NCBI RefSeq assembly: GCF_021555155.1
Contig: NZ_JAKGBU010000017.1
Span: forward strand, 1-64,000
DNA: 64,000 bases
Reading direction: 5' to 3'
DNA from: Rhizobium alarense
Lineage (GTDB): Bacteria; Pseudomonadota; Alphaproteobacteria; Rhizobiales; Rhizobiaceae
A model generated the notes under the pieces. The model was given only the letters and a program-made list of their open reading frames with translations, did not search any database and was not told where the DNA came from. The position numbers and the translations under genes are program-made. Below, one piece after another: positions 21,365-37,707 of the stretch (its first letter is position 1; every line of letters starts with the position of its first letter).

Positions 21365-21697
21365 CTACTTCAGCGCTACATATTTTTCGGGATCGAGCTG
21401 GGTTGCGCGGATGACGACGTATTCTCCACTGGCATTGCCAAGCATGGCGCGTAGTTGCTGACAGGCAGACAGGATCAGTTCGGGTGTTCGCTCGGGCTTC
21501 TGCATGATCTGGATCTCCGCGGCCACCGGCGGCTGGTCCGGCAGACCATAGGACGGGATCAGCAGAAGCTGGCAGAGCGAGGCGTCGACCCTGAACGTCT
21601 CGCACAGATAGCTGCGGATATCTGGCAGGATCGCCTGAACGGCCTCGCCCTTTTGCGCCCAGAGTGGTGCATCGACATAGACCTTCAACAACGGCAT
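21365..21697 (-). CDS. Tautomerase-superfamily protein (intact copy)
   Basis: A 110-residue protein that begins MPLLKVYVD, so Pro2 becomes the N-terminal catalytic proline after methionine removal, the hallmark of 4-oxalocrotonate tautomerase-like enzymes. Its length suits the longer members of the superfamily. It follows the hydroxyquinol dioxygenase gene and overlaps it by 13 bases. Ring cleavage gives 3-hydroxy-cis,cis-muconate, which must ketonise to maleylacetate, so this enzyme may catalyse that tautomerisation. A frameshifted paralog occupies the same position in module D (36492-36817). Confidence 0.75.
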   Translation of the reverse strand: MPLLKVYVDAPLWAQKGEAVQAILPDIRSYLCETFRVDASLCQLLLIPSYGLPDQPPVAAEIQIMQKPERTPELILSACQQLRAMLGNASGEYVVIRATQLDPEKYVALK

Positions 21698-22596
21698 TGC
21701 GTTTTCTTTTCCTTAAGTTCGGTCTGTCCGCTCGGTGTGAGCATTCTCAGAACGTCCGCGATCGGTGTCAGGACGAAGTCGAAGGGCGAATGCCAGTCAG
21801 TTTCGCCGCCCTCAATCTTCTCGAAAGGCGCAACCAGCGTCCTCTTGACGCCGAACACCGCATCGGAGGTGACGTAATGATCGTCGCCGACGAAGGTATG
21901 GGTTACGAGTTTCTGGAAACCTGGCGCCGTGACCAGGAAGTGCATATGCGCCGGCCGATACGGGTGGCGACCAAGATGGCCAAGCATTTTGCCGACTGGA
22001 CCGTCGTCGGGAATCGGGTAGGAGACCGGCTTGATTCCGACGAAGCAGTACTTCCCGTCCTTGCCGGTGACGAAGATGCCGCGGTTGTTCCACTTCGGCT
22101 GGATTCCGGGCTGCTGGACGTCGTAGAATCCGTCGGCATTGTCCGACCAGACATCGACATGCGCGCCTTCGATCGGATTGCCGTGCAGGTCGATGACGCG
22201 TCCCTCGAACAGGCACGCCTCGCCCTTGCCGTCGAGGCAGATGTTCTCGCCCATCTGTCTTATCGGTGCGCCGGCGACATGGAACGGGCCGAACACGGTA
22301 TTCTCCGTAGCCCCGACCGGCCTGCGGTTGTTGATCGCGTCCACCAGCATCGATATCCCAAGCACATCGCTGAGGAGAATATACTCCTGCCGCTCTTCGG
22401 AGCAGATCTGCCCCGTCCTGGTGAAGAAGTCGATGGCCAGATCCCATTCGTCCTGTGTGAGATGCACGTCCTTGATGAAAGCGTGGACGTGGCGGACCAG
22501 CGAAGCCATCACCTGCTTGAGACGCGGGTTTACGTTGTCGCCCATTCGGGCATTGACGGTCTCAGCCGAATGCTCCTCGGTAAAGAACTGGGTCAT
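21685..22596 (-). CDS. Hydroxyquinol 1,2-dioxygenase (intradiol), copy 1
   Basis: A 303-residue intradiol ring-cleavage dioxygenase. After the N-terminal helical dimerisation domain, the non-haem Fe(III) ligands are visible: Tyr in DGFYDVQQPG, Tyr in VSYPIPDDGP, and two His in RPAHMHFLV. It cleaves hydroxyquinol between the 1,2-hydroxyls. The ATG at 22596 has GGAGAG upstream; the open frame to 22698 is not used. Compared with copy 2 the C-terminus is some 20 residues longer, because sequence change at the old stop extended the frame into the tautomerase gene. A 233-base tract (22025-22257) is identical to copy 2. Confidence 0.92.
   Translation of the reverse strand: MTQFFTEEHSAETVNARMGDNVNPRLKQVMASLVRHVHAFIKDVHLTQDEWDLAIDFFTRTGQICSEERQEYILLSDVLGISMLVDAINNRRPVGATENTVFGPFHVAGAPIRQMGENICLDGKGEACLFEGRVIDLHGNPIEGAHVDVWSDNADGFYDVQQPGIQPKWNNRGIFVTGKDGKYCFVGIKPVSYPIPDDGPVGKMLGHLGRHPYRPAHMHFLVTAPGFQKLVTHTFVGDDHYVTSDAVFGVKRTLVAPFEKIEGGETDWHSPFDFVLTPIADVLRMLTPSGQTELKEKKTQCRC
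22025..22257. repeat. 233-base identical tract shared by the two dioxygenase genes (copy 1)
   Basis: Read by eye, every base from 22025 to 22257 equals 37136 to 37368, in the same orientation and reading frame. Outside this interval the genes differ at many silent and coding positions. The tract encodes the central part of the enzyme including the first Fe ligand tyrosine. Confidence 0.85.
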
Positions 22597-22694
22597 GAAC
22601 TCTCTCCTTTCCTGAACCTGTGATCGGGTCACGCTTGCGTTTGATGGGCAGGTATATGAGCCAATTGGGGTGCGCATCCGACGGTTCCCGTGGC

Positions 22695-23756
22695 TCATTC
22701 AGGACGCCTGCCTTCCCAGGCCTGCTGCAGGAGTTCTCGAATTGCGTCCCGTTCGATCGGGCGCGGGTTCCAATAAGGGTTCTTGACGGCCAGTTCGGCG
22801 GCTTTGTCCAGGTCACGTTCCGCCAGCCCCAGGTCTTTCAGAGCAAGGGGAGCGCCAAGCGACGCAGCAAAATCGTGGAGCCCGCCCCCGACCGTTCCAC
22901 CGAACAGTGCGGCGATTGGGGAAAGCGCTTCGGCTGCCGCAGTAGCGTTGTAGGATGCCGCGTGCGGCAGCAAAATTGCATGAGTCTCGGCATGCGGCAG
23001 GTTGAAGCTGCCACCGAGGGTGTGGCAAAGCTTGTGATGCAAAGCCATGCCGACCTGTGCGAGAACCGTACCGCACAGCCAGGAGCCGAACTGGGTTTCG
23101 CTTCGTGCGACAAGATTCCCGGGATCGGCAATAACTCGCGGCAACCCGTCTTTGAAGGCGCGGATGCCGGCAATCGCCAATTGATCGGAAAGCGGATTTC
23201 GGTCCTGCGCGTAGAGAGCCTCCACCGCATGGGCCATGGCGTTGAGACCGCTTGTGACAGTGAGCTTGACAGGCAGAGTGGCAACCAGTTCCGGATCGTA
23301 TAGAATGACCTCGGGCTGCACCCTGGGCGAGCGCAGGGTCTCCTTGACCCCGTTCGCCGTCTGGCCCAGCACGGGCGTCGCCTCGGAACCCGCATAGGTC
23401 GTCGGTAGAACAATCTGCGGCAGGTCGGAGCGGAGCGCGATTGCCTTGGACAAACCTATGGTCGAACCGCCACCGATGGCGACAAGGCAGTCCGCACCGG
23501 CGGCAGCCTCCACGGCGTCCTCCGTGATTTCGACGGGCGTGTGCATGGCCGCTCGACTGAAAAGGCTATGTCCCCTCGGACCCAAGGCTGACAGAACCGC
23601 CTCCCCCTGATCCGACTGTTCCGGTGTCGTCAGCACCATCGCACTTCGAAGGCCAAGGGCCTCCATCTCGGAGCCGATCTCGTGTCGAACGCCCGCCCCT
23701 AAGCGAATTCGCACGGGAGGATGTCCCGGCTCAAAACCGGCATGAAACGTCTGCAT
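22695..23756 (-). CDS. Maleylacetate reductase (copy 2)
   Basis: A 353-residue iron-alcohol-dehydrogenase-family enzyme with GGGSTIGLSKA (NAD site), PTTYAGSEATP and HHKLCHTLGGSFNLPHAETHA. It has the same length as copies 1 and 3 and aligns along its whole length, but differs at many positions. It lies between the monooxygenase (stop-to-start gap of 3 bases) and the dioxygenase, so oxygenation, ring cleavage and reduction are in one operon. Product is beta-ketoadipate. Confidence 0.92.
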   Translation of the reverse strand: MQTFHAGFEPGHPPVRIRLGAGVRHEIGSEMEALGLRSAMVLTTPEQSDQGEAVLSALGPRGHSLFSRAAMHTPVEITEDAVEAAAGADCLVAIGGGSTIGLSKAIALRSDLPQIVLPTTYAGSEATPVLGQTANGVKETLRSPRVQPEVILYDPELVATLPVKLTVTSGLNAMAHAVEALYAQDRNPLSDQLAIAGIRAFKDGLPRVIADPGNLVARSETQFGSWLCGTVLAQVGMALHHKLCHTLGGSFNLPHAETHAILLPHAASYNATAAAEALSPIAALFGGTVGGGLHDFAASLGAPLALKDLGLAERDLDKAAELAVKNPYWNPRPIERDAIRELLQQAWEGRRPE

Positions 23757-23759
23757 GGC

Positions 23760-24968
23760 TTAGACCACCTTCTTCTGGAAGCCGGCAATATGCCTGTAGC
23801 TGGCTGCGACCTCTTCCAATTCCTCCGCCGTAATCAAATCCTCGATGCGGTCGTCCAGTCCCTTGACCCGAGCAGCAGCGATGTCGAGAACCCGTTCGGG
23901 ACCGGACTTGCGGTTGTTCAGAACAACATTGGTGGTGATTGGATGCCGTATGGCTTCGTAGGCGAGGAGCCCTTCAGGTCCTGTCTGCTCAGCCAGGCAA
24001 TCGGCAAGCACGCGTCCATCGATTATCGCCTGAGACGCTCCGTTTGCCCCCATCGGATACATGGGATGGGCGGCATCCCCCAGAAGCGTGACCCGTCCAT
24101 CGGTCCACCAAGGGAGTGGATCGCGGTCGATCATCGGATATTGGGTGATCTTCTGCGTATTTTTCAGAAGCGCGGGAATGTCGATATCCCCCATGCAGAA
24201 GCCTCCATATTCGGCAATGAAATCCCGATCGGCCTCGCGTGTCCAATCTGCTTCCTCGGCGGCCCGAGGATTATCATGACGGATTTCCGCGACCCAATTG
24301 ATCAGAGCCTTGCCGTCACGCGCAGCGCGGCCGCTGATTGGATAGCAGACGAATTTGACATCATGGTCACCTGCAATGAACATCGTGCGACCGTCAGCGA
24401 AGGGCTCCTGCAGACTGGCGCCGCGCCACATCATCGTCCCTTCGTAGTGTGCCGGCCCCTCGTTGGGATGCAGTTGGCGGCGCACATTTGATCGGAAGCC
24501 GCTCGCGTCGATCAAGAGATCGCAATCATGGACGGTCCCGTCGGCGAATTTCACATGAACGTGCTCAGCATCCTGGGTGAAGCCGATCACCGCCTTACCG
24601 GGGGTAACCGAGCCTTCGCCGAGGCGGGCGCGCGCCGTGTCAAGTAAAAGAAACTGCAATTCGCCGCGGTGGATCGAATATTGCGGGTATTCGAAACCGG
24701 CCTCGACCGAGCGCGGATCCGACTGGATGAGATGGCCGAAGCGGGTGCGGTATTCGATGGCGCGGGTGCGGATCGCCATCTCGTCGAGGGCGTCGCCAAG
24801 CCCCAAGCCATGGAGAACACCGGCAGCATGGGGCATCACGTTGATACCCACGCCAAGCGGCTGCAACGCATCGACAGCCTCAAAGACCTGAACCTCGAAC
24901 CCTTTTTCCTGCAGGCAGAGCGCTGCCGCCAAACCGCCAATACCGGCACCCGCTATTGCTATCTTCAC
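23760..24968 (-). CDS. FAD-dependent monooxygenase, salicylate hydroxylase type
   Basis: A 402-residue class A flavin monooxygenase. The GTG at 24968 starts MKIAIAGAGIGGLAAAL directly at the dinucleotide fold and has GGAGA 7-8 bases upstream; the longer frame to 25013 has no such site. The CDLLIDASGFRSNVRR (DG-like) region and LLGDAAHPMYPMGANGASQAI (GD motif) follow. Note that the usual GADG is ASG here. Its single-domain size fits salicylate- and 3- or 4-hydroxybenzoate-type hydroxylases. In this operon it may convert a dihydroxybenzoate to hydroxyquinol with loss of CO2. The AraC-family regulator is divergent from it. Confidence 0.86.
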   Translation of the reverse strand: MKIAIAGAGIGGLAAALCLQEKGFEVQVFEAVDALQPLGVGINVMPHAAGVLHGLGLGDALDEMAIRTRAIEYRTRFGHLIQSDPRSVEAGFEYPQYSIHRGELQFLLLDTARARLGEGSVTPGKAVIGFTQDAEHVHVKFADGTVHDCDLLIDASGFRSNVRRQLHPNEGPAHYEGTMMWRGASLQEPFADGRTMFIAGDHDVKFVCYPISGRAARDGKALINWVAEIRHDNPRAAEEADWTREADRDFIAEYGGFCMGDIDIPALLKNTQKITQYPMIDRDPLPWWTDGRVTLLGDAAHPMYPMGANGASQAIIDGRVLADCLAEQTGPEGLLAYEAIRHPITTNVVLNNRKSGPERVLDIAAARVKGLDDRIEDLITAEELEEVAASYRHIAGFQKKVV

Positions 24969-25343
24969 TACGAAATCTCCAGCTATAGTTATGTGATCGC
25001 AGACCGACCGCACCCAGAGCGGGATCCAAGAACCGATATCCGGATTGGCGCGACCATGGCGTCACGAAAACGGTGATGTGAGTGAGAAGGCCGAAAGCGC
25101 CTGGCCGCTATTTCGGCGGATCGTAAATCCGACCTGCGACCGCCAAGGAAAGCTGCGGCTTCTGCGGGAATGTGATGCCGTCAGGAAATCGCACGATCAT
25201 CCTCCTCATGGTATCCAACAGAATTGTGCTCCCCTCCAAAGGAACAAAATCCTCTTCTTGCTTTCATAAATTGCACCTAGATAATGCTGTTCTCAATGCA
25301 CAGGACTGATTATAAATGTCACAAATGCAAACAGGAACGCCGC
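24969..25343. other. 375-base divergent regulatory region, module C
   Basis: The region lies between the monooxygenase and the divergent AraC-family gene and must hold promoters for both. I find no family-like open frame. An AT-rich stretch at about 25235-25320 is the most promoter-like part, but I could not settle on specific -35/-10 pairs. Confidence 0.4.
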
Positions 25344-26231
25344 ATGGACGGACCTCGGATCGACCGCGAGCACTACGTTTTGGGAGACGCCTCGCAACAT
25401 GTGGGTTTGCTGAACTGCGAACGGATTTCCGAGCGCAGCCACATACACGGCTGGCATGTAGATACGCATTATCACGAGGGTCTGGCCCAGCTCTTCTATT
25501 TCGCAGATGGTGAAATACTCGGGCATCTCGATTTCGAGGAAATACGCATCTCATCTCCAGCGGTCATTTGGATGCCGCAGCTAGTGAGCCATGGCTTCGA
25601 ATATCCGGAGGGCATTTGTGGATGGGTGGTGACGATCCCAAGTGCCGACCTCATGCGCATCTCGCACACCATGCCCTGGATCGATTCCTGGCTGTCACGT
25701 CCGGCGCACATCTTCGGCCACGAACATCAGGCAGGTCTCTTGCCGTTCCATTCGCTCTTCGAAGAGATAGAAGCCGAGCACGCGCATTGGGGAGAAGACC
25801 GTGGCGTGACACTGGAGGCGCTGTTCCGTATCGCTCTTGTTCGGCTCCACCGCTGCCTGCAGCACGCATCACCCCGCAAGAGAACAGCGCTCGTACCGCA
25901 TCAGGCGCTGGTCAGTGAATTCCGAGCTTTGGTGGATCGTGACTACCTCCGGAACAGGTCCGTCAGTGACTACGCGGTAGAGCTCTCGGTGACATCAACC
26001 TATCTGACCCGGTGCGTCCGGGCAGCCATCGGTCGCACCGCCAGCGAGATCATTCATGACCGCCTCATGCTGGAGGCGCGCCGTCTGATGGTCTTCACCG
26101 ATCTTCCAATCGCGCAGATCGCCTATCGTCTCAACTTTTCCACGCCCTCGTATTTCACGCGCTTCTTTGTTGCGCTTGCGGGCGAAAAGCCGACAATTTT
26201 CAGAAGTCGCATGCGAGCGCGCAACAGTTAG
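25344..26231 (+). CDS. AraC-family transcriptional regulator (PobR-like)
   Basis: A 295-residue regulator with an N-terminal cupin effector domain (HVDTHYHEGLAQLFYFADGE) and a C-terminal double helix-turn-helix: SVSDYAVELSVTSTYLTRCVRAAIGRTASEII, then LPIAQIAYRLNFSTPSYFTRFF, the AraC signature. I prefer the ATG at 25344 because CAGGAA lies 8 bases upstream; an in-frame ATG at 25284 is possible. The cupin and layout recall PobR-type activators of hydroxybenzoate hydroxylase genes. It is divergent from the module C operon and should activate it. Confidence 0.9.
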   Translation: MDGPRIDREHYVLGDASQHVGLLNCERISERSHIHGWHVDTHYHEGLAQLFYFADGEILGHLDFEEIRISSPAVIWMPQLVSHGFEYPEGICGWVVTIPSADLMRISHTMPWIDSWLSRPAHIFGHEHQAGLLPFHSLFEEIEAEHAHWGEDRGVTLEALFRIALVRLHRCLQHASPRKRTALVPHQALVSEFRALVDRDYLRNRSVSDYAVELSVTSTYLTRCVRAAIGRTASEIIHDRLMLEARRLMVFTDLPIAQIAYRLNFSTPSYFTRFFVALAGEKPTIFRSRMRARNS

Positions 26232-26340
26232 AGAAATAGTCGAAGACTGTTGTCGCAATTGAAGGCGGCTCGACCGGTCGCCCGGTGCTGAAACGCGTGG
26301 CCGGCCTTCGGGGCGCTTGAGCTGTCCGAGAGGTGCGATG

Positions 26341-27072
26341 TCAAGAGCGCCTGTTGCTTGAGAGGGAGTCCGTGAGAAAGGCTTCAAGCAGCGCATAGCT
26401 ACGGCGCGCGCCCCATGGGCTGTATTTTGCAATGCCCTCTACATCGGCCTCCTCTTCGCAGAAGGAATGCAGCAGGCCGCCAAACATACACATTTCCCAC
26501 CGCGCTCCCGCAGCGTCCAACTCCCTCTCGATACTCAGTCGATGGTTCTGGGGTTCGACCGGATCCTCTGATCCATGCAAAATCAGAAGCTTTGCCTTGA
26601 TGTCGCCTTTGCCGGCCGGAGCCTTGGTCACGAGATCGCCATGTATGCTGACGGCAGCATGCAAGTCAGCGCCGGTGCGCGCCAGTTCCAGAACGTTGCC
26701 GCCGCCGAAGCAGAAGCCGACCGCAACAACTGGCCGTGCGGCGGCCTTGTCGCCAACTGCTTCACGCAGCGCGCGAAGCGCGGCTTGCATCCTGAGCCGG
26801 CGAGCCTCCATATCCGCTCGTAGGCCGTTCGCCAGTTCCGCGGCCTCGTCGAAACTTTGTGCGATACGGCCTTCGCCATACATATCAACCACCAGGCCGA
26901 CATATTGATCACGGACGAGGCGCTCCGCCCTTTCGATCGCTTCCGGCGAGACCCCGATCCAGTTCGGCGCGATCAACATCAACGGTTGGTCGGAGTGGGT
27001 ACCGCGACTTGAGACCAAAACGCTCTTCAGAACGACACCATTCGCTTCGTATTCTACATCTTTCCTTTGCAT
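26341..27072 (-). CDS. Dienelactone hydrolase family protein
   Basis: A 243-residue alpha/beta hydrolase. The nucleophile elbow reads GFCFGG (about residue 119), so the nucleophile is a cysteine as in true dienelactone hydrolases; the acid is in HGSEDPVEP and the histidine in GLLHSFCEEE. It is the last gene of the minus-strand operon 32268-26341, 9 bases after the beta-propeller gene. It may open a lactone produced in the same pathway. Confidence 0.85.
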   Translation of the reverse strand: MQRKDVEYEANGVVLKSVLVSSRGTHSDQPLMLIAPNWIGVSPEAIERAERLVRDQYVGLVVDMYGEGRIAQSFDEAAELANGLRADMEARRLRMQAALRALREAVGDKAAARPVVAVGFCFGGGNVLELARTGADLHAAVSIHGDLVTKAPAGKGDIKAKLLILHGSEDPVEPQNHRLSIERELDAAGARWEMCMFGGLLHSFCEEEADVEGIAKYSPWGARRSYALLEAFLTDSLSSNRRS

Positions 27073-27081
27073 TGCAGCTCC

Positions 27082-28026
27082 TCAGACATTGATCCAACTC
27101 CGCGGCAGGCGAATTTCCGCGAGAATGCCGGCATCGTATTCGGTGAAATAAAGGCGCCCGCTCGAGTGGGCCAAAATGCAGCGAGCACCGGAGGCGGGGG
27201 TTGGTATGTCGAGCGTCCCCGTCATCTCCCCCGTGGTGAGCATCCGACCGATCTTGTTGGACGCATTGGCGGTGAACCACAGAGCATTGTCGGCGCCCAC
27301 CGTGACGCCCCTGAGCGAGGCACCGGTAAGGCCCACCGAATGCTGCTGGATTGACAGGTCTGGGTGGACGACCCCAAGCGAATCCCCGCTTGTTTCAACA
27401 AACCACACGCCTCCATCAGGATGAACGATCAGGGCGCGGGGTTGGCGGTCGCTTCCCGGCAGTTGCAGTCGGTCAATATCGCCGTTTTGCGAGAGCCGCG
27501 CTATGGCACTCCCCCCGACGAGGCTCACCCAGATATTTCCATCGCGTTCACCTATGGCTAGGGGCCTGTCATCTAGCCTCAAGCCCTGCGAAAACTCCCT
27601 GAAATGGCCGTGCGCATCACAGTGAGCGAGCTTTCCCACGTTTCCTTCAGCAAACCAGACGCCGCTGGCGCCATCCTCAAGCATACCCAATGGGCTCGCG
27701 CCCGCAGTCGGAAGGGGCAATAATTCGAATGTGCCGTCACGGTCCATGCGGCCGATATGGCCGGTTCCTTGCGCGGCGAACCAGACACCATTCTCGGGTC
27801 TTGCCGCAAGCCCAACCGGCCTGCTGCCGGTGGGAAGGTCGAACCTCTCCCAGGTGCCAGAAAGCAGATCAAAGCGTGCAATACCGTCCCCCAGGTTTTC
27901 GCTGATCCACAGCGCACCATCGGTGCTTTCAACGCATATGTAGGGGCCAGTCGCCGGATCGGGCAGCTGGTGTTCCCATATTTCAGGCTGCTTTCCGTCT
28001 GCGAGGCATAAGTGCGACATTGCCAT
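27082..28026 (-). CDS. Beta-propeller protein of the virginiamycin B lyase (Vgb) type
   Basis: A 314-residue protein made of about six or seven repeats of the form D-G-x-[LIV]-W-[FI]-[ST] followed some 10 residues later by IGR or IAR (GALWISENLGDGIARFD, NGVWFAAQGTGHIGRMD, NALWFTANASNKIGRML and others). This is the streptogramin lyase/Vgb repeat. Vgb linearises cyclic depsipeptide antibiotics, but many relatives sit in catabolic operons as lactonases or isomerases. Here it lies between a dienelactone-hydrolase-like gene and a 2-hydroxyacid dehydrogenase, so I favour a lactone-acting or binding role; resistance cannot be excluded. There is no signal peptide. Confidence 0.78.
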   Translation of the reverse strand: MAMSHLCLADGKQPEIWEHQLPDPATGPYICVESTDGALWISENLGDGIARFDLLSGTWERFDLPTGSRPVGLAARPENGVWFAAQGTGHIGRMDRDGTFELLPLPTAGASPLGMLEDGASGVWFAEGNVGKLAHCDAHGHFREFSQGLRLDDRPLAIGERDGNIWVSLVGGSAIARLSQNGDIDRLQLPGSDRQPRALIVHPDGGVWFVETSGDSLGVVHPDLSIQQHSVGLTGASLRGVTVGADNALWFTANASNKIGRMLTTGEMTGTLDIPTPASGARCILAHSSGRLYFTEYDAGILAEIRLPRSWINV

Positions 28027-28092
28027 CGCAGTTTCTCCCCAACTTGCTCCAGCTCAGACCACCCCGGTTCTCAAAACCGCCAGAATGTCTCC

Positions 28093-29019
28093 TCAAGATC
28101 GCATGTCTGGCAGGGCGCTCAGGTCATTCGTCCTAAGGGTGACGAGATGACGCTCGAATATGGGTATCGCTTGCTCAGCATAAATGTCGCTCATTCCACC
28201 GATATGCGGTGTGACGATAACATTCGGCTCCATCCACAGTGGATGTTCGTGTGGCAAAGGCTCGATTGAGAAGACATCGAGCGCCGCTCCGGCGATAGAG
28301 CCGGCGCGCAGGTGAGACAAAAGTGCAGCCTCGTCCACGCAGCCGCTACGTGCGATATTCACCAGGTATGCGCTCGATGACATAGCCGAAAGCACAGCAT
28401 CCGAAATGATATGGTGCGTGCCTGGGGTGTAGGGTGTGAGCACCACCACAAAGTCGGCGCCGCCAACGGCATCCTCCAACCGCTCCGGTGGATAGATACG
28501 AGCGAAGTCGTCCAACTCCGAGTAACGGTCAGAGACCCCGACAACAGTCATTCCAAAGGCTGTGCAGCGCGGAGCCAGCACGCCTGCCACTGCGCTGGCG
28601 CCAACGATACAAACGGTTTTCCCCGATAAAAGTGGTTGCGGTATACGTTCCCACCGCGCATCCGTCTGATTGGCCAGAATTCTTGGGAACTGTCTCGGGA
28701 GGCTGAGCATCAACAGAATGGCAAGCTCAGACATTTGCGGCCCGTGGATGCCGCTGGTATTGGTCACAATGACCTCGCTCGGCAGGTCGCGCATACCGAT
28801 CAGGTTATCAACTCCCGTCGTCAATGCGTGTATCCATTTCAACCGAGGCATCCGGCTTATCATTTCGGGCGTGATAAGCGGCGCAATAACTACAAGGCAT
28901 TCCGCGCTGTCGTCATGGGTGCTCATTTCGTCCCAGAGGGGCCACTCATGCTCCGCAAATCTCGATTGCAAGTTTCTGGCGCACCAGGCGGCTTCCTCAC
29001 CATAGCAGACTATATTCAT
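28093..29019 (-). CDS. D-isomer-specific 2-hydroxyacid dehydrogenase
   Basis: A 308-residue member of the D-2-hydroxyacid dehydrogenase family: NTSGIHGPQMSELA, the Rossmann region, NIARSGCVDEAAL with the catalytic arginine, the EPLPHEHPLW segment with the glutamate and TPHIGG with the histidine. The glycine-rich loop is unusual: VGASAVAG replaces the canonical GxGxxG. It would oxidise a 2-hydroxy acid such as a mandelate to a 2-oxo acid, or reduce the reverse, which fits the 2-oxo-acid decarboxylase encoded 57 bases upstream. The ATG at 29019 has GTAGGG upstream; 29034 is an alternative. Confidence 0.84.
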   Translation of the reverse strand: MNIVCYGEEAAWCARNLQSRFAEHEWPLWDEMSTHDDSAECLVVIAPLITPEMISRMPRLKWIHALTTGVDNLIGMRDLPSEVIVTNTSGIHGPQMSELAILLMLSLPRQFPRILANQTDARWERIPQPLLSGKTVCIVGASAVAGVLAPRCTAFGMTVVGVSDRYSELDDFARIYPPERLEDAVGGADFVVVLTPYTPGTHHIISDAVLSAMSSSAYLVNIARSGCVDEAALLSHLRAGSIAGAALDVFSIEPLPHEHPLWMEPNVIVTPHIGGMSDIYAEQAIPIFERHLVTLRTNDLSALPDMRS

Positions 29020-29075
29020 GGCCCTACCGATCACGTACGAGACATCGTCAACGTGGCTCCTGCCGACACAGGGTG

Positions 29076-30707
29076 CTAGTCGTAAAGAGACTGGACCTCG
29101 CTATCGACAACGACCTCCAGGAGCCTCGGCCCGGTACCCTTGACTACGTCCTCAAGCATCTCGTCCAACTCCGTGACCGTTGTCGCACGTTTGGCCCGGC
29201 ATCCCATGCCTTTGGAAAGGCTCACAAAGTCGAGACCTTGGAAATCGATGCCGGGTACTCCAGAGACGTTGAGAACCCGGCTGAAGGAACGCATCGCCCC
29301 ATAACCGCTGTTGTTTAGCAATATGACACAGAGATTCTGGTCATGCTGGGCGGCCGTCCACAGCGCCTGAGCCGAGTACATGAACGATCCGTCTCCGATG
29401 AGGCAGACAACATTTTTTTCGGGCTCCGCAAAAGCCAGACCGACCGCTCCGGGTAATCCATACCCGAGACCGCCACTGGCCATCGTGAAAAAGCTTCCCC
29501 ATTCGCGCATTCGCACATGCTGCTGCATCATAGGACGGTAGGACGGTGCTTCCTCCATCAGCAGCGCCTCGGGCGGCAAAATCTGCCCGAAACGATGAAA
29601 GAAATAATGGGGCGATATTGTTTTGCCCATTTTGGGCACAGGCGGGGCGGCGCGCTCTGCGAACATACCACCGGCGCCTGAGGGTAGTGCCTGCTCGAGA
29701 GCGGGAAGCGAGAAGCGAAGGCTACCGACAATGCTGGTTCCGACAGGCGCCGATGCGGCGGCCTCGGCATCAGTGGTCAGATGAATGATCGACACACCCG
29801 AAGCGACAAGTTCGGACACGCCTGGAATGTGGTAGGTGAAGACAGGGGCTCCGACGACGAGAATAGCATCGTGCTTGGTCAGTCTGGCCGAAACCTCCGA
29901 CGGAGCAGCCGGCAGGAAGCCTTGGAACAGAGGATGATCCTCAGGGAAGGCAATTCTGGAAGCAAATGGTGCTGTATGAACCGGGACGTTGAGCTTTTCC
30001 GCCAAGGCAACCAAAGCCGGGCCGGCATTTTCCTCATCAACCTCCGAGCCAGCGACGATGACAGGTCTGCGCGCGCGCGCGAGTTCTGCCGCAGCGGACC
30101 GTATCAACTCAATATCCGGTGCAAAGTCCTGAGAAACCGTGCGGTATCTGACCGGAGTGCAAGGTCGGTCCCAATCATCGACAGGAACCGAAACGAAGGT
30201 CGGGCCTTGAGGTCTTTGCATCGCGATACGGTAGGCGTGGGCGATCGCAGCCGGCACATCCTCGGCGCGTGCCGGCTCAATCGCATATTTCACATATGGT
30301 CGGGGAAAAGTAGTCGCCTCGCTTGCACCCAGAAACGGCAGATTGGGAAGCAGTTCGCGCGCCTGTTGTCCAGCGATGATCACCATCGGCGCGCGGTTGC
30401 GGTACGCGGTATAGACATTTCCCAAGGCATGGCCGAGCCCAGCGGCGGAGTGCACGTTGACCACGGCCGCCCGGCCGGTCTTGCGGGCATAGCCATCCGC
30501 CATTGCGACCACCGAAGCTTCCTGGAGACCCAGCACATACTGGATATCATTGGGCCAGCGGTTCAGAAATGGCAGTTCGGTCGAACCGGGATTGCCAAAT
30601 AGCTTGCTGACCCCCAGTGATCGGAACAGTTCCATCGTTGCTTCACGGACCGTGGTTTGGGTCGTCGGTGCGCCGATAGAGGCGGGCGATATTGCCTGTT
30701 GCGCCAT
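29076..30707 (-). CDS. Thiamine-diphosphate decarboxylase, benzoylformate decarboxylase type
   Basis: A 543-residue ThDP enzyme. Residues known from benzoylformate decarboxylase (MdlC) are present: the active-site Ser in GNPGSTELPFL near 38-48, the cofactor Glu63 in LQEASVV, His86 in NVHSAAGLGHA, the second catalytic His in VFTYHIPG, and the ThDP/Mg motif from GDGSFMYSAQ to LLNNSGYG. It should decarboxylate an aryl 2-oxo acid to the aldehyde used by the aldehyde dehydrogenase upstream. The ATG at 30707 follows AAGGA; the open frame to 30911 overlaps the dehydrogenase gene and is not credible. Acetolactate-synthase-like activity is less likely given the HSAAG block. Confidence 0.88.
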   Translation of the reverse strand: MAQQAISPASIGAPTTQTTVREATMELFRSLGVSKLFGNPGSTELPFLNRWPNDIQYVLGLQEASVVAMADGYARKTGRAAVVNVHSAAGLGHALGNVYTAYRNRAPMVIIAGQQARELLPNLPFLGASEATTFPRPYVKYAIEPARAEDVPAAIAHAYRIAMQRPQGPTFVSVPVDDWDRPCTPVRYRTVSQDFAPDIELIRSAAAELARARRPVIVAGSEVDEENAGPALVALAEKLNVPVHTAPFASRIAFPEDHPLFQGFLPAAPSEVSARLTKHDAILVVGAPVFTYHIPGVSELVASGVSIIHLTTDAEAAASAPVGTSIVGSLRFSLPALEQALPSGAGGMFAERAAPPVPKMGKTISPHYFFHRFGQILPPEALLMEEAPSYRPMMQQHVRMREWGSFFTMASGGLGYGLPGAVGLAFAEPEKNVVCLIGDGSFMYSAQALWTAAQHDQNLCVILLNNSGYGAMRSFSRVLNVSGVPGIDFQGLDFVSLSKGMGCRAKRATTVTELDEMLEDVVKGTGPRLLEVVVDSEVQSLYD

Positions 30708-30819
30708 GGCCAATGTTTCCTTTTCAGTGCGGCTTCCACAGAGCCACTTATGTCGCTTGCGATGCGGGATATCCGGGGTTCCGGGCGGATGGTCGTCGCC
30801 ATCCGCCCGGTCATCTTGC

Positions 30820-32268
30820 TCAGAATGGATAGTGCTGATGTGGATCTTCAATCGTGACCCAGCGCAATTCGGTGAAAGCCTCGACTGCGGGCTGTCCCCC
30901 GAACCGGCCATAGCCGCTGCCTTTCATGCCGCCGAAAGGCATGTTTGCTTCGTCTGCAACGGTGGGACCGTTGATATGGCAGATCCCGGCCTCAATCCGG
31001 CTGGCAACATCCATCGCACGGTTGATGTCGGAACCGAAAACGGCGGAGGAAAGACCATAGGTATTGTCATTGGCAAGTGCGATGGCATGCTCGGTGTCGC
31101 GCGCCCGAACCACGCATACGACCGGACCGAAGCTCTCGTCGCCGTACAGGGCCATCTCGGACGTCACGTGGTCGACAACCGCCGCCGGCATGATCGTGCC
31201 GGCTTCGGGAACCGCTCCCGTCACGACCTTGCCTCCCTTGTCGATTGCGTCCTTCACCAGGAAGCGCACGCGCTCGATAATATCCGTATCGACGACCGAG
31301 CCTAGTACGACGTTTTCGGTCGATTTGCCAAAGCTGAGCGATGCGGCCTTGGCGGCGAATTTTTCGACGAACGCATCCGCCACCTTTTCATCGACGATAA
31401 TCCGCTCCGTCGACATGCAGATCTGGCCCTGATTGAGGAATGCGCCGAAGGCAGCGGCATTGACGGCAGCGTCGAGATCGGCGTCATCCAGAACGATCAG
31501 CGGCGCCTTGCCGCCGAGTTCGAGTAGAACCGGTTTCAAATGACGCCCAGCCTGCTCGGCAATGATCTGTCCTACTCGGGTCGACCCCGTAAAATTGATA
31601 CGTTTCACCTTCGGGTGGGCAATGAGCGCCGAGACGACCTCCGGCGCGTCTTCCGCGGAGTGTGTGACCACGTTCAGCGCGCCTTCAGGCAGTCCCGCCT
31701 TGGCGAAGATCTCACCGATCATGACATGCGTCCGCGGGCAGCGTTCGGAAGCCTTGAGGACGACCGTGTTGCCGCAGGCGAGAGGCATCGCGACCGCACG
31801 AACGCTGAGGATGATCGGCGCATTCCAAGGGGCCATGCCGACCAGCACGCCTACCGGTTGCCGCAAGGTCATCGCATAGGTACCGGGCTTGTCTGACGGA
31901 ATGGTCTGACCGGCTATCTGGGTGGTCATTGCAGCCGCCTCTCTGATCATGCGCGCAGCAAGCATGACGTTGAAGCCGAGCCAGATTTTCGTGGCTCCGG
32001 TTTCCAGTGCCGCGATTTCGGCGAGTTTTGGCGTTGCCTCGTCAAACAGGTCCGCAGCCTTCAACAGGATCGCCCGACGCTGTGTCGGCCCCATCTTCGA
32101 CCATGTCCGGAATGCCTTGTCCGCCGCTTCGACTGCGCGGTCGACATCCTGTTTTTTGCCGGCCGCGGCGCGCGTGACAACCTCACCCGACATAGGGTTC
32201 TTGCGATCGAACAGAGCTCCCGACTCGGTAAAGCTTTGTTTCCCGTCAATCAGCATTCCGACATCCAT
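30820..32268 (-). CDS. Aldehyde dehydrogenase, aromatic (vanillin/benzaldehyde) type
   Basis: A 482-residue NAD(P)-dependent aldehyde dehydrogenase: cofactor motif FTGSTRVGQ, general base Glu in LELGGKAP, nucleophile Cys in NQGQICMSTERI, and the C-terminal GGMKGSGYGRFGG. The overall pattern, including QAVEAFTELRWVTI-like C-terminal residues, is that of salicylaldehyde/vanillin/benzaldehyde dehydrogenases. GGAGGAGAAGTC precedes the ATG at 32268, so the upstream frame to 32310 is not needed. It is the first gene of the operon and oxidises the decarboxylase product to the aromatic acid. Confidence 0.9.
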   Translation of the reverse strand: MDVGMLIDGKQSFTESGALFDRKNPMSGEVVTRAAAGKKQDVDRAVEAADKAFRTWSKMGPTQRRAILLKAADLFDEATPKLAEIAALETGATKIWLGFNVMLAARMIREAAAMTTQIAGQTIPSDKPGTYAMTLRQPVGVLVGMAPWNAPIILSVRAVAMPLACGNTVVLKASERCPRTHVMIGEIFAKAGLPEGALNVVTHSAEDAPEVVSALIAHPKVKRINFTGSTRVGQIIAEQAGRHLKPVLLELGGKAPLIVLDDADLDAAVNAAAFGAFLNQGQICMSTERIIVDEKVADAFVEKFAAKAASLSFGKSTENVVLGSVVDTDIIERVRFLVKDAIDKGGKVVTGAVPEAGTIMPAAVVDHVTSEMALYGDESFGPVVCVVRARDTEHAIALANDNTYGLSSAVFGSDINRAMDVASRIEAGICHINGPTVADEANMPFGGMKGSGYGRFGGQPAVEAFTELRWVTIEDPHQHYPF

Positions 32269-32363
32269 GACTTCTCCTCCTAAGTGATGTTTCGTGTCAG
32301 TACGACGCATCGGCGCTCGGCCCCGCCCTCATCTCGTCCACAATGCCTACTAGGCTAAAACTT

Positions 32364-32424
32364 CTATTATAGCAATATGTATTTCAATAATAGATTGACA
32401 GCGGGAACCGTCTTGCCTCATATT
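32364..32424 (+). promoter_or_regulatory. Inverted repeat and promoter upstream of dctP
   Basis: CTATTAT at 32364-32370 and its exact reverse complement ATAATAG at 32387-32393 flank 16 bases. A consensus -35 box TTGACA starts at 32395 and a weak -10 box CATATT follows 18 bases later (32419-32424). The element lies in the 320-base gap between the divergent aldehyde dehydrogenase and TRAP operons and is a good candidate for the IclR-type regulator encoded downstream. The rest of the gap holds no gene. Confidence 0.5.
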
Positions 32425-32588
32425 GCCGAGGCTGCGACTATGGTGCGCGTTGCCAGTCGGCTATCGCATTCAGCGCAGGGGGCGGGGTGTGCCATTCGTC
32501 ACCAGACATCGCGCCGACGGAGGAGAGGAAGTGTCGGGCCGCAAGGGCTGACCACTTCTTGGGACGTGCCATTCATGGGAGGATAAAC

Positions 32589-33632
32589 ATGACCACTCGA
32601 CGGAAATTCATACTCGCGTCCGCCAGCATACTGGCCGCGCCGGCGCTAGTCCGTTCGGCTTTTGCGCAAAAAGCCGAATACTCTTTCAAGATTCACCACT
32701 TCCTCGGCCCTAAGGCACCGGCGCAGACAAAGATGATGGAGCCCTGGGCGCAGCGGATCGAGGATGAAAGCAAGGGGCGAGTCAAATTCGAGATCTACCC
32801 TTCAATGTCGTTGGGTGGCTCCCCTCCGCAATTGTTTCGCCAGGTGGCTCAAGGGGTCGTCGACATCGTCTGGACGCTGCAGGGATACACGCCCGGGCTG
32901 TTTCCGCGATCTGAAATTTTCGAGCTGCCCACGGTTTACGTAAACGACCCTGCGGCCGCCAATCTTGCGATGCGGGCCATGTTCGATGAGTATCTCGCAT
33001 CGGAATATGAAGCCGTCCATGTCTTGTATTTTCACGTCCACGCGGGCCAGGCCATGCAAATGGCGAACAGCATTGTTCGATCGCCTGCTGACCTCGCCGG
33101 CAAGAAAATGCGTGTGCCGGGACCGACCGGAATCGCCGTTCTCGAGGCCTTGGGCGCCAGCCCTGTTTCCATGCCAATCCCGGATTTGCCACAGGCTCTC
33201 GCGACCAGCGCGATCGATGGTGCGCTATCGCCCTTCGAGGTCATTCCGGCATTGCAGCTCCAGGATACGACCAATTATCAAATCGAAGGACCGAATAACT
33301 CTCGTTTCGGCACAAGTTGCTTCCAGTTCGTGATGAACAAGGAGCGGTGGGCCTCCCTGCCGGAGGATATCCAAGACATCTTCAACCGGAACTCCGGCGA
33401 GGATTGGCTGCGGGAAGTCGGCGACCTCTGGCGTGCCAACGATGACGCGGGAATCAAGATTGCCGTGGATTCGGGCAACGAGCATATTGCTCTCAGCGAA
33501 GCCGAAATGGCGGAATTCGACAAAGCACTGGCAGGCGTGGTGGATTCGTGGGTCGCCAAGAACAAGGCCACTTTCGATGCACAAGCCATTGCTGACCGTG
33601 CTCGGGCCCTGATCGCGCAGTATTCCAAATGA
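32589..33632 (+). CDS. dctP: TRAP transporter substrate-binding protein DctP
   Basis: A 347-residue periplasmic receptor. MTTRRKFILASASILAAPALV is a signal sequence with a twin-arginine-like start and cleavage near AFAQ (residue 26). The mature part shows DctP-family features: FKIHHFLGPKAPAQT, the GGSPPQLFRQVAQGVVDIVW segment and KMRVPGPTGIAVLEALGASPV with the arginine that usually binds the substrate carboxylate. GGGAGGATAAAC precedes the ATG. It is followed by DctQ and DctM genes and opposed to the aryl-glyoxylate operon, so it probably captures the substrate of that pathway. Confidence 0.92.
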   Translation: MTTRRKFILASASILAAPALVRSAFAQKAEYSFKIHHFLGPKAPAQTKMMEPWAQRIEDESKGRVKFEIYPSMSLGGSPPQLFRQVAQGVVDIVWTLQGYTPGLFPRSEIFELPTVYVNDPAAANLAMRAMFDEYLASEYEAVHVLYFHVHAGQAMQMANSIVRSPADLAGKKMRVPGPTGIAVLEALGASPVSMPIPDLPQALATSAIDGALSPFEVIPALQLQDTTNYQIEGPNNSRFGTSCFQFVMNKERWASLPEDIQDIFNRNSGEDWLREVGDLWRANDDAGIKIAVDSGNEHIALSEAEMAEFDKALAGVVDSWVAKNKATFDAQAIADRARALIAQYSK

Positions 33633-34213
33633 GTGCAGTTCCTCACGTCACAAAAGACGGTGGCAACCCTCAAAGGCGCCGCTTTCTCAAGTACTGGGAC
33701 GGCCCCTTGTCAGCCGTAATTCATCTGTGGGCCCTCTTCGGGGGCCTCATCATCGTGGGGCTCGCACTCATCACGGCCGCGAGCGCCACGGGCAAACTAT
33801 TACTTGGTGCACCATTTCCTGCCGACCACGAATTGGTGAAGCACTTTGTGGCAATCGCGGTGTTCATGTTCCTTCCGTATTGTCAGCTAACGCATGCCAA
33901 TGTCACGGTCGACGTTTTCACCGAAGGAATGAGTGAGACGAAGAAAGCGCTCATGGAACTCGTCGCTTCGCTTGTTGCGCTCGGATTCTCGCTCTTGCTG
34001 TTTCGCCAGATGTATCTTGGAATGGGTGGCTATCTGCTCTTTCCTGAAGTGACGCCTGTGCTGGGGCTCCCGCTCTGGACCGCCTTCCCGGCCATGCTGG
34101 CTTCGCTGCTCCTTCTGATGGTCGCCTCAATTCTCACCACGCTTGAAGCACTGCGTGCGTACAAGGCTGCCTCAGCCGCTTCCGCGCCTTCCAGCAAACC
34201 CGCACGAGACTGA
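33629..34213 (+). CDS. dctQ: TRAP transporter small permease DctQ
   Basis: A 194-residue membrane protein with four hydrophobic segments and the family motif in FLPYCQLTHANVTVDVFTEGM after helix 2. The start overlaps the dctP stop by 4 bases. It pairs with DctM in the inner membrane. A short cytoplasmic N-terminus of about 30 polar residues is present. Confidence 0.9.
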   Translation: MSAVPHVTKDGGNPQRRRFLKYWDGPLSAVIHLWALFGGLIIVGLALITAASATGKLLLGAPFPADHELVKHFVAIAVFMFLPYCQLTHANVTVDVFTEGMSETKKALMELVASLVALGFSLLLFRQMYLGMGGYLLFPEVTPVLGLPLWTAFPAMLASLLLLMVASILTTLEALRAYKAASAASAPSSKPARD

Positions 34214-34219
34214 AAAATC

Positions 34220-35542
34220 ATGAGTGAAAATGTCGTTCTAGGCATCGGTGGCCTTTTTGCGCTGATCGGTTTGCTTGCCGTGAGGGTGCCTGTGGCCTAC
34301 ACAATGCTGATCGTCGGGATGGCGGGTATCGCAATGATATCGGGATCCGCGATCCTTCTGAGCCAGCTCGAAGATCTCGCCTATGCTCAGTTTTCCGTCT
34401 ACGACCTTTCAGTCGTGCCCATGTTTGTGCTGATGGGAGGTATCGCGTCACGATGCGGACTATCCAGGGATTTGTTCAGGGCGGCTAACGCTTGGATCGG
34501 TCAACTGAGGGGTGGTGCGGCCATGGCTGCGATAGCCGCATGTGCGGGCTTCGGGGCACTTTGCGGCTCCTCGACCGCCACCGCTTCGACGATGGCACAG
34601 GTGGCGCTTCCTGAGCTGAAGAGGTTGAACTATTCCGGTTCCCTTGCCACCGGGACACTTGCCGCCGGCGGCACTTTGGGCATCCTTATTCCGCCATCCG
34701 TTGTTTTGATCGTCTACGCCGTCATCGTGGAGGCGAACATCGTCAACATGTTCGCCGCTGCTTTGATACCCGGCATTCTGGCGATGGTTCTCTTCATGCT
34801 GGCGATCTGGATCTACACGTTGATCTGGCCCGAAGCGGCACCCCGGAACACGGCCCCGTCCCTATCCGAGCGGATACAGGCGCTATATGCAGTCGTGCCG
34901 GTGTTTGCCATCTTCGGCGTCGTGATCGGTGGTATTTACGCCGGAATCTATAGCCCGACGGCGGCAGCCGCGATCGGTGTGGTGTTGGTCGTCGCCTATG
35001 GCGTGATCCGCCGACGCCTGACGCTCTCGGCTTTCTTCACATCCCTCAACGAAACCGCGCGTACCACGGGTATGATCTTCCTCATCCTCCTGGGCGCAGA
35101 GCTGCTCAAAATTTTTCTGGCACGAATAGGCGCTCCGCAAGCTGCGGCGGAAATGCTGCAAGGCTCGGGTCTCTCGCCCTATGCCATCCTAATTTTGACC
35201 ATCGCCATTTTCCTGGTTCTCGGCTGTTTGATGGATAGCCTGTCGATGGTCATCCTCGCGGTGCCTTTCTTCTGGCCGGTGATTTCCGGTCTCGATTTCG
35301 GATTGACCCCAGACGAGACGAAAATCTGGTTCGGCATCATCATCCTGATCGTCGTGGAGTTAGGCCTGATCACACCACCAGTTGGGTTGAATGTGTTCAT
35401 TATAAGTGCCATGTCGCCTGATGTTCCAATGCGCGAGACCTTCAAAGGTGTCATGCCCTTCTTCTTCTCTGAGATTGTCAGAGTGACCTTGTTGATTGCG
35501 TTGCCATCTATCGTTCTGGCGCTTCCTCGTTTGTTGCAATAG
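34220..35542 (+). CDS. dctM: TRAP transporter large permease DctM
   Basis: A 440-residue integral membrane protein with about twelve transmembrane segments, the standard DctM length. It carries the conserved CGSSTATASTMAQVALPELKR loop and the GTLAAGGTLGILIPPSVVLIVYA stretch, which are diagnostic of the family, and the late ELGLITPPVGLNVFI repeat. It begins 6 bases after dctQ. It catalyses sodium-driven uptake with DctP and DctQ. Confidence 0.93.
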   Translation: MSENVVLGIGGLFALIGLLAVRVPVAYTMLIVGMAGIAMISGSAILLSQLEDLAYAQFSVYDLSVVPMFVLMGGIASRCGLSRDLFRAANAWIGQLRGGAAMAAIAACAGFGALCGSSTATASTMAQVALPELKRLNYSGSLATGTLAAGGTLGILIPPSVVLIVYAVIVEANIVNMFAAALIPGILAMVLFMLAIWIYTLIWPEAAPRNTAPSLSERIQALYAVVPVFAIFGVVIGGIYAGIYSPTAAAAIGVVLVVAYGVIRRRLTLSAFFTSLNETARTTGMIFLILLGAELLKIFLARIGAPQAAAEMLQGSGLSPYAILILTIAIFLVLGCLMDSLSMVILAVPFFWPVISGLDFGLTPDETKIWFGIIILIVVELGLITPPVGLNVFIISAMSPDVPMRETFKGVMPFFFSEIVRVTLLIALPSIVLALPRLLQ

Positions 35543-35632
35543 AAGCTGTCACTGCAGTTGCAGGCGACCCACTGGGATTGCAGGTTGGCCGCGGGCGAGT
35601 ATCGGCAATGAAACAATGAATGGATCCAGTAC

Positions 35633-36403
35633 ATGAGTGGGCAGCTCAATAGCTCGGTATCGACAGCTTTTTCCATACTAAATTTGCTGTCAGAAAGCCG
35701 GCCTGTCATCACCACGCAGGACGTAACTCGTGAACTCGCTATCAATCAGACGACTGCTTACCGCTTTCTGCGGACGCTTGAGGATCTGGGAGCCTTGGTG
35801 ACGGTCAAGCGGGGTCAGTATCGGCTAGGCGCAGTACTCGCTGATCTTGGCGAACGCGCGATCGCGAACAACACACTGGCTTATGTTGTCCAGCCGTACC
35901 TGAACGAGATTACCGAGGAGCTTAAAGAATCGGCGCTGGCGACGGCCAACCATCATAATCGCACAATAGTCATTGCTCGAACCAGATCGCGGCAGCCCTA
36001 TTCAGTCAATATCGACGTCGGAACAGAACTCGAAGCCCACTGCACCGCAAACGGCAAGCTTTGGCTGGCAAATTTGTCGGAAGAGGAGTTGAACCATTAT
36101 CTTTCGAACTCCGAACGGCCTGCGTTCACGGCCAAAACCATTGTCGATGCACAAGCTCTGAAAGTGGCTGTCGCTCTCACACGCAAAGACGGCTATGCCA
36201 TATGCTTGGGCGAGCGGGAGCAGGAGATGTCGGCGGTTGGCGTCCCGGTGCTTTCGCGCAGTGGAAGAATGATTATGGGGTTGTCGGTTTTCGGCCCGAA
36301 TTCTCATTTCAACGAGGCCTTTCGAAGGAAATCAGTCGAAGTGTTGAGCAAGATGGCCGTGCAGGTTCAAGCATCTCTCTACGGCGACAACAAAGTGAAT
36401 TGA
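35633..36403 (+). CDS. IclR-family transcriptional regulator
   Basis: A 256-residue IclR protein. The winged helix is at residues about 10-70 (TTQDVTRELAINQTTAYRFLRTLEDLGALV), followed by the GAF-like effector domain with VNIDVGTELEAHCTANGKLWLA and the GYAICLGEREQEMSAVGVPVL signature. It lies 90 bases downstream of dctM and could be transcribed with the transporter. It is the likely regulator of the divergent transporter and aryl-glyoxylate operons. Confidence 0.9.
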   Translation: MSGQLNSSVSTAFSILNLLSESRPVITTQDVTRELAINQTTAYRFLRTLEDLGALVTVKRGQYRLGAVLADLGERAIANNTLAYVVQPYLNEITEELKESALATANHHNRTIVIARTRSRQPYSVNIDVGTELEAHCTANGKLWLANLSEEELNHYLSNSERPAFTAKTIVDAQALKVAVALTRKDGYAICLGEREQEMSAVGVPVLSRSGRMIMGLSVFGPNSHFNEAFRRKSVEVLSKMAVQVQASLYGDNKVN

Positions 36404-36491
36404 GTTTCAGAGATTGGAATAGTTTATCATGCTCAAATCGAAACGCCAGCCAATGCGGCGCTCGCCAAGGGTGAGCTGTCTTACGTTGCAA

Positions 36492-36817
36492 CTACTTGAG
36501 CGCCATATATCTTTCTGGATCGAGTTGTGTTGCGCGGATGACGATATATTCGCCGCTGGCGGTGCCGAGCATGCTGCGCAATTGGTGGCAAGCGGACATG
36601 ATGATCTTCGACGTTCGCTCCGGCTTCTGCATGATCTGGATCTCGGCTGCTATCGGAGGCTGGTCCGGCAGGACGGGATGAGCAGAAGCTGACAGCGCGA
36701 GGCGTCAACCTTGAATGTCTCGCACAGATAACGGCGGATGTCTGGCAGTATCGCCTGCACGCCTTCGCCCGTCTCCGCCCAGAGCGACGCATCGACATAG
36801 ACCTTCAACAACGGCAT
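36492..36817 (-). pseudogene. Frameshifted tautomerase (module D copy)
   Basis: The ATG at 36817 opens MPLLKVYVDASLW, matching the intact tautomerase at 21365-21697, but after LLLIPS a 7-base deletion relative to that copy (near 36680) shifts the frame and a stop follows. The remaining codons down to the TAG at 36492-36494 still encode DPERYMALK, the expected C-terminus, in another frame. About 45 of 110 residues remain in frame with the catalytic proline, so the protein is probably inactive. Confidence 0.85.
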
Positions 36818-36858
36818 CGTGTTTTCCTTTTCTTGAGTTCGGCCAGTCGTGAACGCGC

Positions 36859-37707
36859 TCAGTCTTCCGAAATCGGTGTCAGGACGAAGTCGAAGGGTGA
36901 GTGCCAGTCGGTTTCTCCGCCCTCGATCTTCTCGAAGGGCGCAACGAGCGTCTTCTTCACGCCGAACACGGTATCCGAGGTGATGTATTTGTCGTCGCCG
37001 ACGAAGGTGTGGGTCACCACCTTTTCGTAGCCTGGAGCGGTGACGATGTAATGCATGTGGGCGGGCCGATAGGGATGGCGGCCGAGATGGCTGAGCATCT
37101 GGCCGACCGGGCCGTCGTCCGGAATCGGGTAGGACACCGGCTTGATTCCGACGAAGCAGTACTTCCCGTCCTTGCCGGTGACGAAGATGCCGCGGTTGTT
37201 CCACTTCGGCTGGATTCCGGGCTGCTGGACGTCGTAGAATCCGTCGGCATTGTCCGACCAGACATCGACATGCGCGCCTTCGATCGGATTGCCGTGCAGG
37301 TCGATGACGCGTCCCTCGAACAGGCACGCCTCGCCCTTGCCGTCGAGGCAGATGTTCTCGCCCATCTGGCGCAAGGGCGCATTGGCGACGTGGAAGGGAC
37401 CGAGCACCGTGTTCTCGGTGGCGTCGGGCGGCCGGCGGTTGTTGATCGCATCGACCAGCATGGAAAAGCCGAGCGTGTCGGAGAGGAGGATGAACTCCTG
37501 GCGTTCGTCCGATGAGATCTGGCCGACCTTGGTGAGAAAGTCGATGCCATAGTCCCACTCGGCCTGCGTCAGTTGGATTTCCTTGGCGAAGGCATGGAGG
37601 TGCTTGACCAGACAGGTCATGACCTCGGCGAGGCGTGGGTCGGTGGACGCAGCCATACGGGCATTGACGGATTCTTCTGAATTCTGTTCGGTGAAATAGC
37701 GCGACAT
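36859..37707 (-). CDS. Hydroxyquinol 1,2-dioxygenase (intradiol), copy 2
   Basis: A 282-residue intradiol dioxygenase with Fe(III) ligands Tyr in DGFYDVQQPG, Tyr in VSYPIPDDGP and the histidine pair in RPAHMHYIV. I chose the ATG at 37707, which has AAAGGAG upstream; a TTG two codons earlier is in frame. It stops at a normal TPISED, while copy 1 runs on. A 233-base tract (37136-37368) is identical to copy 1. It lies 25 bases after livM and completes the operon that starts with the monooxygenase at 45261. Confidence 0.92.
   Translation of the reverse strand: MSRYFTEQNSEESVNARMAASTDPRLAEVMTCLVKHLHAFAKEIQLTQAEWDYGIDFLTKVGQISSDERQEFILLSDTLGFSMLVDAINNRRPPDATENTVLGPFHVANAPLRQMGENICLDGKGEACLFEGRVIDLHGNPIEGAHVDVWSDNADGFYDVQQPGIQPKWNNRGIFVTGKDGKYCFVGIKPVSYPIPDDGPVGQMLSHLGRHPYRPAHMHYIVTAPGYEKVVTHTFVGDDKYITSDTVFGVKKTLVAPFEKIEGGETDWHSPFDFVLTPISED
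37136..37368. repeat. 233-base identical tract shared by the two dioxygenase genes (copy 2)
   Basis: The partner of 22025-22257, 15111 bases away in the same orientation. One mismatch lies just outside the tract (37135), after which similarity falls to that of ordinary paralogs. Confidence 0.85.

What the first reader, a model, noticed from the sequence alone, without database searches (positions are those of the whole stretch)
22025..22257. 233-base identical tract in two diverged dioxygenase genes suggests gene conversion
Positions 22025-22257 equal 37136-37368 at every base, while both flanks of the genes are clearly diverged, including at silent sites. The tract edges are sharp. Recent recombination between the two copies, 15 kb apart in direct orientation, explains this better than selection. 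The same homology could delete or amplify the 15 kb between them.
Basis: seen in the sequence. Interest (0 to 1): 0.6.

Follow-up and report, generated by a model that had tools for sequence, protein, structure and literature searches.

The report
Gene conversion between two dioxygenase genes
On a conjugative plasmid of a bacterium related to Agrobacterium and Rhizobium, 233 bases were recently copied between two distantly related ring-cleaving enzyme genes 15 kb apart: a clear but ordinary case of gene conversion.

Summary
The genes encode hydroxyquinol-type intradiol dioxygenases: dioxA (21685-22596, -) and dioxB (36859-37707, -). Outside the tract they are 68% (5') and 82% (3') identical. 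Fourfold silent sites differ at 0/32 in the tract but 22/38 and 20/44 beside it. Among 3,982 comparably diverged pairs of relatives the longest identical run is 62 bases, and relatives' silent sites vary normally inside the tract, so selection does not explain it.

The genes are not simple tandem duplicates: their 5' parts belong to different lineages (AU p = 0.0096). The dioxB operon matches Agrobacterium fabrum Kin001 pAt2; the dioxA module matches A. tumefaciens pAt1D1609a. Diagnostic sites in the tract follow dioxA's lineage (25:11; dioxA flank 51:23, dioxB flank 23:61), so copying most likely went A to B. An older transfer probably gave the dioxB side its A-type tautomerase-like gene, now frameshifted.

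The contig carries trb and repABC genes, so it is plasmid DNA. Gene conversion between repeats is well documented, also on Rhizobium plasmids. Deletion or amplification of the 15 kb is possible but untested. A clean new example of a known process.

The parts
22025..22257 (-). Converted tract, copy in dioxA (probable donor); codons 114-190 plus two bases of the gene
   Evidence: Exact 233-bp match to 37136-37368; lineage-diagnostic sites match dioxA's own lineage
37136..37368 (-). Converted tract, copy in dioxB (probable recipient)
   Evidence: Exact match; 52 differences from the B-type gene of Kin001 where about 27 are expected if native
21685..22596 (-). dioxA, hydroxyquinol-type intradiol dioxygenase (303 aa); its C-terminus runs about 20 aa past the usual stop and overlaps the tautomerase-like gene
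   Evidence: Pfam PF00775 and PF04444; sequence; compared with L115
36859..37707 (-). dioxB, hydroxyquinol-type intradiol dioxygenase (282 aa); 5' part of Kin001/Allorhizobium type
   Evidence: Pfam; closest solved structure 8r2x, 6-chlorohydroxyquinol 1,2-dioxygenase, E 2.6e-126; tree
21365..21697 (-). Intact gene behind dioxA (110 aa), called tautomerase-like here only by its look (no Pfam or NCBIfam hit at 1e-3)
   Evidence: ORF list, no family hit, 88% nt identity to the gene at the same place in pAt1D1609a
36492..36817 (-). A-type copy of that gene behind dioxB, broken by a 7-base deletion (frameshift)
   Evidence: 83% nt identity to the dioxA-side gene but 47-55% to the genes of B-type operons; frame broken
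22258..37135 (.). 14.9-kb segment between the identical tracts: dioxA 5' end, maleylacetate reductase, FAD monooxygenase, AraC-type regulator, benzoylformate-decarboxylase-like and aldehyde dehydrogenase genes, TRAP transporter, IclR-type regulator, broken tautomerase-like copy, dioxB 3' end
   Evidence: ORFs; collinear with annotated pAt1D1609a
36886..45274 (-). B operon (FAD monooxygenase, maleylacetate reductase, ABC transporter, dioxB), one 78.7% nucleotide match to Kin001 pAt2

Best explanation
Two hydroxyquinol-type dioxygenase genes of different descent lie 15 kb apart in direct orientation on one plasmid, because an aromatic-degradation module ending in dioxA sits beside the operon ending in dioxB. 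Homologous recombination paired them, and about 233 bp of the conserved middle of dioxA replaced the matching part of dioxB: non-reciprocal ectopic gene conversion, recent enough that no base has changed since. An older transfer of A-type sequence had probably already replaced the tautomerase-like gene behind dioxB. Shown: the identical tract, its excess over chance and over selection, the different lineages of the 5' parts, the A-type gene behind dioxB. Inferred: direction A to B, a donor within the same cell, the repair mechanism, the absence of a crossover.
For: Exact 233-bp identity with diverged flanks. Silent sites: 0/32 fourfold differences in the tract against 22/38 and 20/44 beside it, while 101 relatives diverge normally there (0.516) and no pair of comparable flank identity exceeds a 62-bp run. 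5' parts fall in different clades, AU p = 0.0096 against sisterhood; dioxB 5' groups with Kin001, L086 and L012 at 100/98. Tract sites follow the A lineage: 25:11, dioxA flank 51:23, dioxB flank 23:61; Fisher p = 3e-5 against the dioxB flank and 1.0 against the dioxA flank. The tract is 86.7% identical to the dioxA counterpart in pAt1D1609a against 76-79% to B-type genes and pairs with that counterpart at 93/84.
Against: The AU test on the 233-bp tract alone does not reject placing it with the B-type genes (p = 0.42), so the direction rests on site counts and distances. The 3' parts of the two genes are unresolved, so the extent of the older exchange inside the dioxygenase is uncertain. No reads were available to exclude an assembly error. 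Three other genomes with two related copies show no such tract (longest runs 11-23 bp).
Confidence: 0.83

Rival explanations
1. Gene conversion in the opposite direction (B to A), or both copies received the tract from a third, incoming gene.
For: The AU test on the tract alone does not exclude a B-type placement. The tract's GC3 (0.88) exceeds both genes' flanks (0.72-0.82), and L010, a gene in a B-type operon, is almost as close (86.3%) as the A counterpart.
Against: The tract has more differences than expected from all three B-type relatives (52 against 27, 49 against 35, 55 against 35), while its distance to the A counterpart is what a sequence native to A should have (31 against 34-39).
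Confidence: 0.12
2. Assembly artefact: short reads of the two genes were merged in this interval, or the contig was misjoined at the repeat.
For: The genome is a draft of 201 contigs; no reads were available.
Against: Copies as different as these flanks would not be merged. For two direct copies of an exact repeat the only other assembly is a separate 15-kb circle, which would leave the identity itself true. Both operons continue collinearly with relatives on each side.
Confidence: 0.03
3. Strong selection on the protein and on silent sites kept this part identical in two old copies.
For: The tract lies in a conserved part of the enzyme and holds one tyrosine motif thought to bind iron (ligand role from knowledge of the family).
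Against: Relatives differ at about half of the fourfold sites in this very region.
Confidence: 0.01
4. The identity dates from the arrival of the 15-kb module by a crossover inside the dioxygenase gene, not from a later conversion.
For: Kin001 pAt2 has the B operon next to the same TetR and hydrolase genes without the module, so the module was gained or lost there; a crossover would leave direct repeats at its ends.
Against: pAt1D1609a already has the module beside a B-site dioxygenase remnant with its own B-type tautomerase-like gene, so the arrangement appears older than the tract. In the window neither copy has the B-type tautomerase-like gene that a simple crossover would leave at one end.
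Confidence: 0.05

Closest known systems
[quoted passage not shown] 2005)
   Same: Same bacterial family (inferred); non-reciprocal transfer between repeated genes on a large plasmid, with crossover as the alternative outcome
   Different: There the copies are nearly identical and followed by experiment; here the copies differ by 20-30% outside the tract and the event is read from sequence alone
tuf gene conversion in bacteria (PMC5485169)
   Same: Two paralogous genes of one cell exchange internal tracts without reciprocal change
   Different: The homology there spans the whole coding sequence and homogenises it; here one short tract lies in otherwise diverged genes
catIJ/pcaIJ gene conversion in Acinetobacter (from memory; not found in the held library)
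   Same: Conversion between parallel aromatic-degradation genes in one genome
   Different: Other genes and another organism; could not be read here

Membership tests
Ectopic (intragenomic) gene conversion | Identical tract bounded by diverged homologous flanks, also at silent sites | tested here: met
Ectopic (intragenomic) gene conversion | Tract follows the donor's lineage and conflicts with the recipient's flanks | tested here: met
   Site counts and distances favour A as donor; the AU test on the tract alone is inconclusive
Ectopic (intragenomic) gene conversion | Non-reciprocal: donor sequence unchanged | tested here: inconclusive
   The A-side tract has the distance to its counterpart expected of a native sequence (31 differences, 34-39 expected), but no unconverted close relative is held
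Ectopic (intragenomic) gene conversion | Dependence on homologous recombination proteins | not testable with these tools
   Needs genetics
Hydroxyquinol 1,2-dioxygenase (intradiol dioxygenase) | Dioxygenase_C and Dioxygenase_N domains | tested here: met
Hydroxyquinol 1,2-dioxygenase (intradiol dioxygenase) | Closest solved relatives are hydroxyquinol rather than catechol enzymes, with maleylacetate reductase in the operon | tested here: met
   8r2x and 1tmx rank first; far below all catechol equivalog cut-offs; maleylacetate reductase-like genes in both operons
Hydroxyquinol 1,2-dioxygenase (intradiol dioxygenase) | Activity on hydroxyquinol | not testable with these tools
   Needs an enzyme assay

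The most novel reading that the evidence does not exclude
Repeated one-way conversion (A to B) between two horizontally assembled aromatic-degradation operons on conjugative plasmids, which rebuilds the catalytic middle of one isoenzyme from the other while its ends stay distinct.
Probability: 0.2. Interest if true: 0.4.

Novelty: new member of a known kind. Interest (0 to 1): 0.25.

Why it matters
It is a clean natural case of gene conversion between genes that differ by 20-30%, where mismatches should hinder recombination, and it shows how catabolic operons gathered on a plasmid can exchange parts. It also cautions that trees of such dioxygenases built on whole genes can mislead, because parts of one gene have different histories.

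Tried and rejected
Selection on silent sites: rejected by fourfold-site divergence among relatives. Simple duplication of one gene: rejected for the 5' parts (AU p = 0.0096). A first FastTree run made the 3' parts of A and B sisters at 0.888; the careful tree with more relatives did not confirm it, so the claim of an older exchange rests on the tautomerase-like gene and not on the dioxygenase 3' end. Recurrence: three other genomes of the family with two related copies showed longest identical runs of 11-23 bp, so no general hotspot was found. No other genome of the same genus is held.

Full report
Observation. The sequences 22025-22257 and 37136-37368 are identical over 233 bp, and this is the maximal run. 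They lie in two genes on the minus strand, dioxA (21685-22596) and dioxB (36859-37707). Identity is 231/339 on the 5' side of the tract and 220/268 on the 3' side. No codon differs over the 77 codons of the tract, while 38 of 113 and 12 of 90 residues differ in the flanks. Fourfold silent sites differ at 0/32 in the tract and at 22/38 and 20/44 beside it. Shuffling codon columns 20,000 times never gave a run above 75 bp. Among 3,982 pairs of relatives with comparable flank identity the longest run is 62 bp. The genome holds only these two places.

Selection or recombination. Among 101 related genes the fourfold sites differ at 0.516 within the tract, against 0.548 and 0.576 in the flanks, so nothing holds silent sites constant there. 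Recombination remains. With no change in 233 bp, the upper 95% limit of divergence since the event is about 1.3% over all sites.

What the genes are. Both have the Dioxygenase_N and Dioxygenase_C domains, fall far below the cut-offs of the catechol 1,2-dioxygenase models, and dioxB is closest to 6-chlorohydroxyquinol and hydroxyquinol 1,2-dioxygenases among solved structures. Both operons carry a maleylacetate reductase and an FAD monooxygenase, as expected of a hydroxyquinol pathway (established knowledge of that pathway). The tract covers codons 114-190 and holds the first conserved tyrosine motif (GFYDVQQ); the second tyrosine and the histidine motif lie just outside.

Different descent. 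The 5' part of dioxB groups with Agrobacterium fabrum Kin001 pAt2, L086 and L012 at 100/98; that of dioxA pairs with pAt1D1609a, weakly (92/53); sisterhood of A and B is rejected (AU p = 0.0096). The B operon matches Kin001 as one 8.4-kb block at 78.7%, and in Kin001 it is followed by the same TetR and hydrolase genes that in the window lie beyond dioxA, with that pair inverted. The 15 kb from dioxA to the IclR gene is collinear with pAt1D1609a. In pAt1D1609a a dioxygenase remnant lies beyond the IclR gene; a transposase gene stands where its front should be, and it is followed by a B-type tautomerase-like gene. Kin001 thus looks like the arrangement without the module, and pAt1D1609a like the arrangement with it.

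Direction. At sites where at least two of three B-type genes agree against the pAt1D1609a gene, the tract scores 25 A-lineage to 11 B-lineage; dioxA's 5' flank 51:23; dioxB's 23:61. Fisher tests give p = 3e-5 against dioxB's flank and 1.0 against dioxA's. The tract has 52, 49 and 55 differences from three B-type genes where 27, 35 and 35 are expected if it were native to B; it has 31 from the A counterpart where 34-39 are expected. A to B is thus the likely direction. The tree of the tract alone pairs it with the A counterpart (93/84), but the AU test does not exclude the B side (p = 0.42).

An older exchange. The tautomerase-like gene behind dioxB is 83% identical to the one behind dioxA, whereas the B-type operons of pAt1D1609a, Kin001, L005, L012 and L008 carry a gene only 47-55% identical to it. 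It has a 7-base deletion that breaks its frame. A-type sequence therefore probably reached the B site earlier. Where that older replacement begins within the dioxygenase 3' part is not resolved.

Setting. The window carries trb conjugation genes (46.9-56.6 kb) and ParA/RepB/RepC-type genes (57.6-61.6 kb), so it is probably part of a repABC conjugative plasmid; the closest relatives are also on conjugative plasmids. The family is inferred to be Rhizobiaceae because a genome of the same family (G288, L086) is the Allorhizobium taibaishanense record of L005. The assembly has 201 contigs. Two direct exact repeats allow only one linear path, or a shorter path plus a separate circle, so a swap of flanks is not an alternative (inference).

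Comparison. Gene conversion between repeated genes, with or without crossover, is documented on Rhizobium etli plasmids (PMC10932983, which also cites work on conversion tracts and on plasmid amplicons) and for paralogous genes of one chromosome (PMC5485169). The case is a new example of a known process.

Noticed in passing
36492-36817: The tautomerase-like gene behind dioxB is frameshifted by a 7-base deletion relative to the intact copy behind dioxA.
   Followed up: yes
21685-21760: dioxA lacks the stop codon position of its relatives and runs on about 20 residues, overlapping the start of the next gene.
   Followed up: partly
46907-61580: trb-type conjugation genes next to ParA, RepB and RepC genes: the contig probably belongs to a repABC conjugative plasmid.
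   Followed up: partly
18961-21022: The TetR-hydrolase pair is inverted relative to its place behind the B operon in Agrobacterium fabrum Kin001 pAt2.
   Followed up: no
16601-17662, 22695-23756, 42473-43534: Three maleylacetate reductase-like genes lie within 27 kb, but only two dioxygenase genes of this kind.
   Followed up: no
L116:15524-17372: In pAt1D1609a an ISL3-type transposase gene stands where the front of the second dioxygenase copy should be.
   Followed up: partly
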